Part shown: in pieces, positions 1 to 694 of the stretch
How positions within the stretch are numbered: the first letter of the stretch is position 1
Layout of the letters: each line of letters opens with the position of its first letter
Source: Treponema sp.
GTDB taxonomy: Bacteria; Spirochaetota; Spirochaetia; Treponematales; Breznakiellaceae
NCBI GenBank assembly: GCA_031266175.1
Contig: JAISBN010000004.1
Span: forward strand, 1 to 34,069
Direction of reading: 5' to 3'
DNA: 34,069 bases
The notes under the pieces: generated by a model
Told to the model about the DNA's origin: nothing
The model's input: the letters and a program-made list of their open reading frames with translations, nothing else
The model's database searches: none
Program-made: the position numbers and the translations under genes

Positions 1-694
1 AAACTTGAGAGGATTATAAATTTGCCGCCAAAACAACTTATTGGGGCGGGGTGTAAATATCTTGTTGTATTTGCGGAAAAAATACCCCCCCCCCCCCCCC
101 TCCCCCGAAAAAAGAAAAAAGCTTTTTACCGTACTGGTATCCCCGTCCTGGGGGACGTCCGCATTACTTTCCAGATACGGTGAACGCCTGCTTGATCCTT
201 TGATAAAAACAGGCTGGCGTATAATTGTAAGACCCCATCCACAGTCAAAACAGTCAGAAAAACCTCTGCTTGCAAAACTTCAGCAGAAATATGAAAATGT
301 TCCCACCATCGAATGGAACTACGACAGCGAAAATATTTCTGTCCTCGCAAAATCAGATATCATGATTTCAGATTTCTCGGGCATTATTTTTGACTATATT
401 GCGCTGTTTAACAAACCTGTATTATACGCAAACGAAAAAATTGATTTGCGTCCATACAATACTTTTTTTCTTAACAAAGAAGACTATTGGCCGTTACGGG
501 CTTTAAAAAAATTCGGCCTTGAACTAAAGGAGAAAAACTTTGGATTCCTGCGGGATATAATTACCCGTGCGGTAAAAGACAAAACTGCGGAAGAAGCCAG
601 GAAATGGACAAAGGATAACGCCTGGCAGCGACAGGGAGAATCCGGAAAAATCGTCACCGATTACATGATTCAGGTAAAAGGGGGATTCTTATAA
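1..694 (+). CDS. CDP-glycerol:glycerophosphotransferase (TagB/TagF-like), 5'-truncated by the window edge and frameshifted at a poly-C tract
   Basis: Frame 1 (nt 1-84) encodes KLERIINLPPKQLIGAGCKYLVVFAEKI, matching KLRNLKPKELVMAGSGYLDVYAEKI of the 11882-13123 paralog. Frame 2 after the tract (ORF 41-694) encodes LFTVLVSPSWGTSALLSRYGERLLDPLIKTGWRIIVRPHPQS...DIMISDFSGIIFDY, matching the rest of the paralog. Confidence 0.85.
85..100. repeat. C16 homopolymer tract (followed by T and C5) inside the coding region; candidate slipped-strand phase-variation tract
   Basis: Direct reading: ata-C16-T-CCCCC-gaaaaaag at 82-114. Confidence 0.9.

What the first reader, a model, noticed from the sequence alone, without database searches (positions are those of the whole stretch)
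1..694. Poly-C (C16) contingency tract splits a teichoic-acid-type glycerophosphotransferase gene: candidate phase-variable surface polymer switch
Seen directly: nt 1-84 in frame 1 encode KLERIINLPPKQLIGAGCKYLVVFAEKI, and the homologous continuation (TVLVSPSWG...) lies in frame 2 after a C16-T-C5 tract. Frame 1 terminates at TGA 181-183. Losing one C (C15) or gaining two (C18) would restore a continuous protein, ...AEKIPPPPPSPEKRKKLFTVLVSPSWG..., aligned with AEKIREMRGRKESPEQLTVLVSPSWG of the intact paralog at 11882-13123. The tract falls in the least conserved linker. Long poly-C/G tracts in surface-glycan genes are classic slipped-strand phase-variation elements. The gene is coupled (TAATG) to tagD and the fusion gene, so switching could also be polar on those.
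Basis: partly seen in the sequence, partly recalled or inferred. Interest (0 to 1): 0.85.

Follow-up and report, generated by a model that had tools for sequence, protein, structure and literature searches.

The report
Poly-C tract in TagF-like polymerase gene
In an uncultured spirochaete related to termite-gut Treponema, a run of 16 cytosines interrupts a gene for a teichoic-acid-type polymerase at its inter-domain linker; other species carry the same kind of run at the same spot, which suggests an on/off switch for a surface polymer, but the run lies 84 bases from the end of a draft contig, so its exact length is not established.

Summary
Nt 1-84 (frame 1) and 104-694 (frame 2) are parts of one PF04464 (TagF-like) gene, separated by C16 (85-100), T, C5. 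Nine poly-C tracts of this genome lie within about 100 nt of contig ends, so the assembled length (C16, 'off') cannot be trusted.

Relatives support the contingency reading. The sister species has an intact, tract-free gene. Four species from two other lineages carry an in-frame C15 in exactly this linker (about 0.03 expected by chance), and two more carry C16 just upstream of the same gene. The linker is a coil between the two domains of a predicted TagF-like fold. The genome has 20 tracts of 12 or more C (1-2 expected), mostly upstream of genes. In relative G012, 5 of 11 in-gene tracts hit glycan-synthesis families.

Against: no length variation was seen in reads, and two invariant residues are changed in the 28 codons before the tract. 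Most likely this is a slipped-strand phase-variable gene: a known kind in a new place. The state of this copy is unknown.

The parts
1..84 (+). 3' end of the N-terminal half of the PF04464 gene (28 codons, frame 1); the rest is off the contig
   Evidence: aligns with residues from 183 of the intact G001 ortholog; R188I and D204V at invariant positions
85..100 (+). C16 tract (poly-C on the coding strand), in the inter-domain linker
   Evidence: sequence; absent in sister species; C15 at the same linker in G012, G079, G081, G082
101..106 (+). T followed by C5, a second short C run in the linker
   Evidence: sequence
104..694 (+). C-terminal domain of the PF04464 gene (frame 2, stop TAA 692-694)
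   Evidence: PF04464 E 1.3e-10; 88% identical to the G001 ortholog; dN/dS 0.18
694..1167 (+). cytidylyltransferase-like gene (tagD-like), overlapping the previous stop (TAATG)
   Evidence: PF01467 E 1.4e-17; below the equivalog cut-off for glycerol-3-phosphate cytidylyltransferase
1157..3841 (+).
   Evidence: PF02096 E 1.1e-19
11882..13123 (+). intact PF04464 paralog without a tract
   Evidence: 413 aa ORF; PF04464 E 7.8e-9

Best explanation
The C tract is a slipped-strand contingency element in the linker between the two domains of a TagF-like glycerophosphotransferase. Replication slippage changes the number of C. When the length keeps the frame, the two-domain enzyme is made with a short proline stretch in the linker; otherwise translation stops early in the second domain's region and the enzyme is lost. 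Cells of one gut population would then differ in a glycerophosphate-type surface polymer, plausibly to escape phages or recognition by host or protists. Shown: tract, frames, recurrence at the same linker in other lineages, linker position in the fold, genome-wide excess of such tracts. Inferred: slippage, switching, the polymer, the selective reason. Unknown: whether this copy is on or off.
For: C16 in frame-breaking position, far above chance. Same linker carries in-frame C15 in G012, G079, G081, G082 and C8 in G009; C4 in G073. At least two origins on the gene tree without the window, three with it. C16 50-60 nt before the start of the same gene in G003 and G007. The linker, residues 211-221, is coil between a helix and the first strand of the second domain; best fold match is TagF. 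20 tracts of 12 or more C in the genome against 1-2 expected. In G012, 5 of 11 in-gene tracts lie in glycan-synthesis families. Purifying selection on both parts since the split from the sister species.
Against: No reads and no within-species length variation could be examined. The tract lies at a contig end where assemblies break. Two invariant residues before the tract are changed. About 90 of 97 linkers in the family have no tract, including the sister species. In G024 in-gene tracts fall in genes of mixed function.
Confidence: 0.6

Rival explanations
1. The tract is real but its assembled length is wrong and constant in nature: the gene is in frame in essentially all cells, and the 'split gene' is an assembly product at a contig end. 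No switch.
For: Tract 84 nt from the contig end; 9 of 21 tracts within about 100 nt of an end; the four homologous tracts are all C15 and in frame; changes clustered on the contig-end side.
Against: Runs of 15-16 C slip readily in bacteria (established knowledge); tract lengths at this linker differ between species, from none or C4 to C8, C15 and C16.
Confidence: 0.2
2. Tolerated noise: these genomes expand C runs by mutational bias, and this linker is simply one of the few coding places that tolerate them. Length changes occur but are not selected as a switch.
For: Most tracts are intergenic; tract numbers vary from 0 to 135 per genome in the family; lengths are narrow within a genome whether coding or not, mode 15 in G012 and 12 in G024.
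Against: Repeated hits on one linker; glycan-synthesis families among in-gene tracts of G012; tracts point at gene starts in G000 and at lipoprotein genes through a conserved element.
Confidence: 0.13
3. Plain pseudogene: the copy was broken by the tract and is decaying, the paralog at 11882-13123 having taken over.
For: Frameshift as assembled; R188I and D204V at invariant positions; an intact paralog is present.
Against: No stop or indel after the tract, and no change specific to the window at 73 conserved positions there; dN/dS 0.18, like neighbouring genes; the sister species keeps both copies.
Confidence: 0.07

Closest known systems
Campylobacter jejuni NCTC 12662 gene 06875, CDP-glycerol:poly(glycerophosphate) glycerophosphotransferase of the capsule locus (PMC8949473)
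   Same: Same enzyme annotation; frameshift loss changes the capsule and gives resistance to phage CP39, so reversible loss would have an obvious use
   Different: Resistance mutations were spread over nine sites, one in a T8 run, and the paper states they were not in homopolymeric tracts like the known ones; no long C tract in a linker
Treponema pallidum poly-G tracts of tprE, G, J, L and tp0126 (PMC7864442)
   Same: Spirochaete; homopolymeric G/C tracts of varying length control surface-protein genes
   Different: Tracts act in promoters and are about 7-11 G; here the tract is 15-16 C inside a glycan-synthesis gene. The intergenic tracts noticed in passing are closer to this type
Poly-C/poly-G tracts inside surface-glycan genes of Neisseria, Campylobacter and Helicobacter (e.g. 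PMC6321876, PMC5084427)
   Same: Long C or G runs that shift the frame of surface-structure genes by slippage
   Different: Switching is shown there by sequencing or phenotype; here it is inferred from assembled genomes
TagF wall teichoic acid polymerase (PDB 3l7i, 3l7k)
   Same: Best fold match of the sister ortholog; same Pfam family PF04464
   Different: 14% identity, TM about 0.55; acceptor and polymer unknown in these spirochaetes

Membership tests
Homopolymeric-tract phase-variable (contingency) gene | Tract longer than composition predicts | tested here: met
   C16; about 0.01 such runs expected per genome
Homopolymeric-tract phase-variable (contingency) gene | Tract placed so that a length change shifts the frame of a gene or alters its promoter | tested here: met
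   between the two parts of one gene, aligned with the intact ortholog
Homopolymeric-tract phase-variable (contingency) gene | Tract length varies within a species or clone | tested here: inconclusive
   lengths differ between species at the same linker; no second copy of this species' tract was found; no reads available
Homopolymeric-tract phase-variable (contingency) gene | Reversible switching of expression at high rate | not testable with these tools
   needs reads, clones or reporters
Homopolymeric-tract phase-variable (contingency) gene | Part of a set of tracts enriched in surface-structure genes | tested here: met
   G012: 5 of 11 in-gene tracts in glycan-synthesis families against about a tenth of 94 neighbouring genes; G024 less clear
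CDP-glycerol glycerophosphotransferase (PF04464, TagF/TagB type) | Profile match above the curated cut-off | tested here: met
   41.2 bits against 22.1 for the frame-2 part
CDP-glycerol glycerophosphotransferase (PF04464, TagF/TagB type) | TagF-like two-domain fold | tested here: met
   sister ortholog model, mean pLDDT 82; TagF chains are the top matches, E 2e-10
CDP-glycerol glycerophosphotransferase (PF04464, TagF/TagB type) | Complete open gene in the window | tested here: not met
   N-terminal half is off the contig and the frame breaks at the tract as assembled; intact in the sister species
CDP-glycerol glycerophosphotransferase (PF04464, TagF/TagB type) | Transfers glycerol phosphate from CDP-glycerol | not testable with these tools
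   needs an enzyme assay
Treponema pallidum-type promoter tract | Tract lies in the promoter of the regulated gene | tested here: not met
   the tract lies between homologous coding parts; an effect on downstream promoters was not tested

The most novel reading that the evidence does not exclude
Spirochaetes of this family, largely from termite guts, hold large and so far undescribed sets of poly-C-switched surface genes: in-gene tracts in glycan-synthesis enzymes, with this polymerase hit repeatedly in its linker, plus a conserved tract-bearing intergenic element, C(n)-GATAGGWWTACYAGGAWWTA, in front of lipoprotein and other secreted-protein genes.
Probability: 0.45. Interest if true: 0.75.

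Novelty: new member of a known kind. Interest (0 to 1): 0.55.

Why it matters
Phase variation by homopolymeric tracts is known mainly from pathogens of vertebrates. A tract that arose repeatedly in the linker of one polymerase would show that insect-gut symbionts use the same bet-hedging on surface polymers, plausibly against phages or in contact with protists and host. It also warns that genes interrupted at such tracts in draft genomes may be assembly breaks rather than broken genes.

Tried and rejected
Looking for the missing 5' half or a second contig with another tract length: nothing. A poly-G read artefact as the cause of this tract: rejected, because homologous coding sequence continues on both sides; such artefacts may explain C64 at C104 and the G-rich contig end in G077. 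The tract as part of the dispersed intergenic repeats: rejected, its flanks are the gene's own. Strain variants of this species in the protein collection: none; four proteins start exactly at VLVSPSWG (P0206, P0210, P0216, P0237) and may be split genes or contig edges; their DNA could not be fetched. Solved relatives by sequence alone: none.

Full report
What is there. The window is one complete contig, C77, of a draft genome of 2.58 Mb in 160 contigs. Its relatives among named records are largely Treponema and Spirochaetaceae genomes assembled from metagenomes; the termite-gut origin is my reading of isolate codes and known species, not a tool result. Nt 1-84 and 104-694 are two parts of one PF04464 gene, divided by C16-T-C5. 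The closest genome, G001, has the intact gene at the same place in the same gene order, 408 aa, without a tract.

How far the assembled length can be trusted. The tract starts 84 nt from the contig end. Of 21 tracts of 11 or more C in this genome, 9 lie within about 100 nt of a contig end, where about 1.5% each is expected. Mixtures of lengths would cause such breaks, and so would sequencing stutter. On the contig-end side, 2 of 11 conserved residues are changed in the window only (R188I, D204V); on the other side the ten departures at 73 conserved positions are all positions where G001 departs too. Nucleotide identity to G001 is 82% in the first 84 nt and 90% after the tract. I read this as a poorly determined contig end, with decay as the rival. 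C16, and therefore 'off', is unproven.

Recurrence at the same linker. Of 203 genomes of the family, 89 have this gene or a relative of it. Among about 97 linkers, five carry 15 or 16 C: the window, G012, and G079, G081, G082 of one genus; G009 has C8, and G073, close to the last three, has C4. The four C15 copies are open, full-length genes. The tree forces at least two origins without the window, so three with it. About 0.03 such tracts would be expected (my hand calculation: some 680 tracts of 12 or more C in about 98 Mb of 37 family genomes, times 97 linkers of about 36 nt). In G003 and G007 a C16 tract lies 50-60 nt before the start of the same gene. In the predicted structure of the sister ortholog, residues 211-221 are coil between the two domains, and TagF is the best match. 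A frameshift there should remove the second domain, and a short proline run there should be tolerated (inference).

Selection. Between window and G001, dN/dS is 0.09 for the 28 codons before and 0.18 for the 187 codons after the tract, similar to neighbouring genes at 0.13-0.19. The 28-codon value is rough because dS there is high.

The wider setting. G000 has 20 tracts of 12 or more C against 1-2 expected. Apart from the window's own and one at a contig end, 18 are intergenic; 17 have the C strand pointing at the start of the next called gene, 28-570 nt away, and the eighteenth has an uncalled 198-aa ORF 38 nt downstream in that direction. The genes include a glycosyltransferase 8, an ABC-2 permease, three lipoprotein-like and five other proteins with a signal or membrane segment, and a paralogous family without a Pfam match. 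In G012, 63 tracts were examined; 11 lie in called genes, 5 of them of glycan-synthesis families including this one, against about a tenth of 94 neighbouring genes. G024 has shorter tracts in genes of mixed function. The gene calls come from a simple hexamer model of mine, so single assignments may be wrong.

Mechanism and precedents. Best supported is a slipped-strand contingency gene; the polymer and its use are inference. The nearest functional parallel is C. jejuni 06875 (PMC8949473), the nearest spirochaete parallel the promoter poly-G of T. pallidum (PMC7864442). My paper searches found no description of such tracts in termite-gut treponemes; most subscription papers are not held.

Verdict. 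Observation confirmed; contingency reading likely; state of this copy unknown; the kind is known, the place is new.

Noticed in passing
L382 (G000:C7), L370-L398; family-wide: Conserved intergenic element, C(n) followed by GATAGGWWTACYAGGAWWTA: the core occurs in 28 of 203 family genomes (reversed-pattern control: 2 matches), 19 genomes have 8 or more C just upstream of it, including single-contig genomes G031 and G172. Of 20 loci with 6 or more C, 7 precede a lipoprotein-like gene, against 3% at random points. Possibly a phase-variable promoter or leader element.
   Followed up: partly
G000, G012, G024 tracts: Long C tracts are preceded by TA unusually often: 14 of 20 in G000, 19 of 61 in G012, 9 of 46 in G024; TA is not among the six commonest dinucleotides before C4-C6 runs. 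The window's tract also follows TA, a TA already present in the sister species' tract-free gene.
   Followed up: partly
L182, L186, L190, L191, L194 (G000); L381 (G001): Several tracts precede members of one paralogous family (about 220-240 aa, motif WTHIP) with no Pfam match.
   Followed up: no
window 1157-3841 (+) and 3838-6636 (-): Two convergent long genes with a YidC-type N-terminal domain (PF02096) and a long C-terminal part; the second has a weak sulfatase match. A similar gene overlaps the start of the PF04464 gene in G012.
   Followed up: partly
G000:C104:11-74; G077:C61 (L286): C64 at a contig start, and a G-rich contig end exactly at this gene's linker; both look like assembly or sequencing artefacts.
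   Followed up: partly
G031:C1, L161: A C45 tract in a single-contig family genome, unusually long.
   Followed up: no
window 13169-13240 (-): tRNA gene just after the paralog.
   Followed up: no
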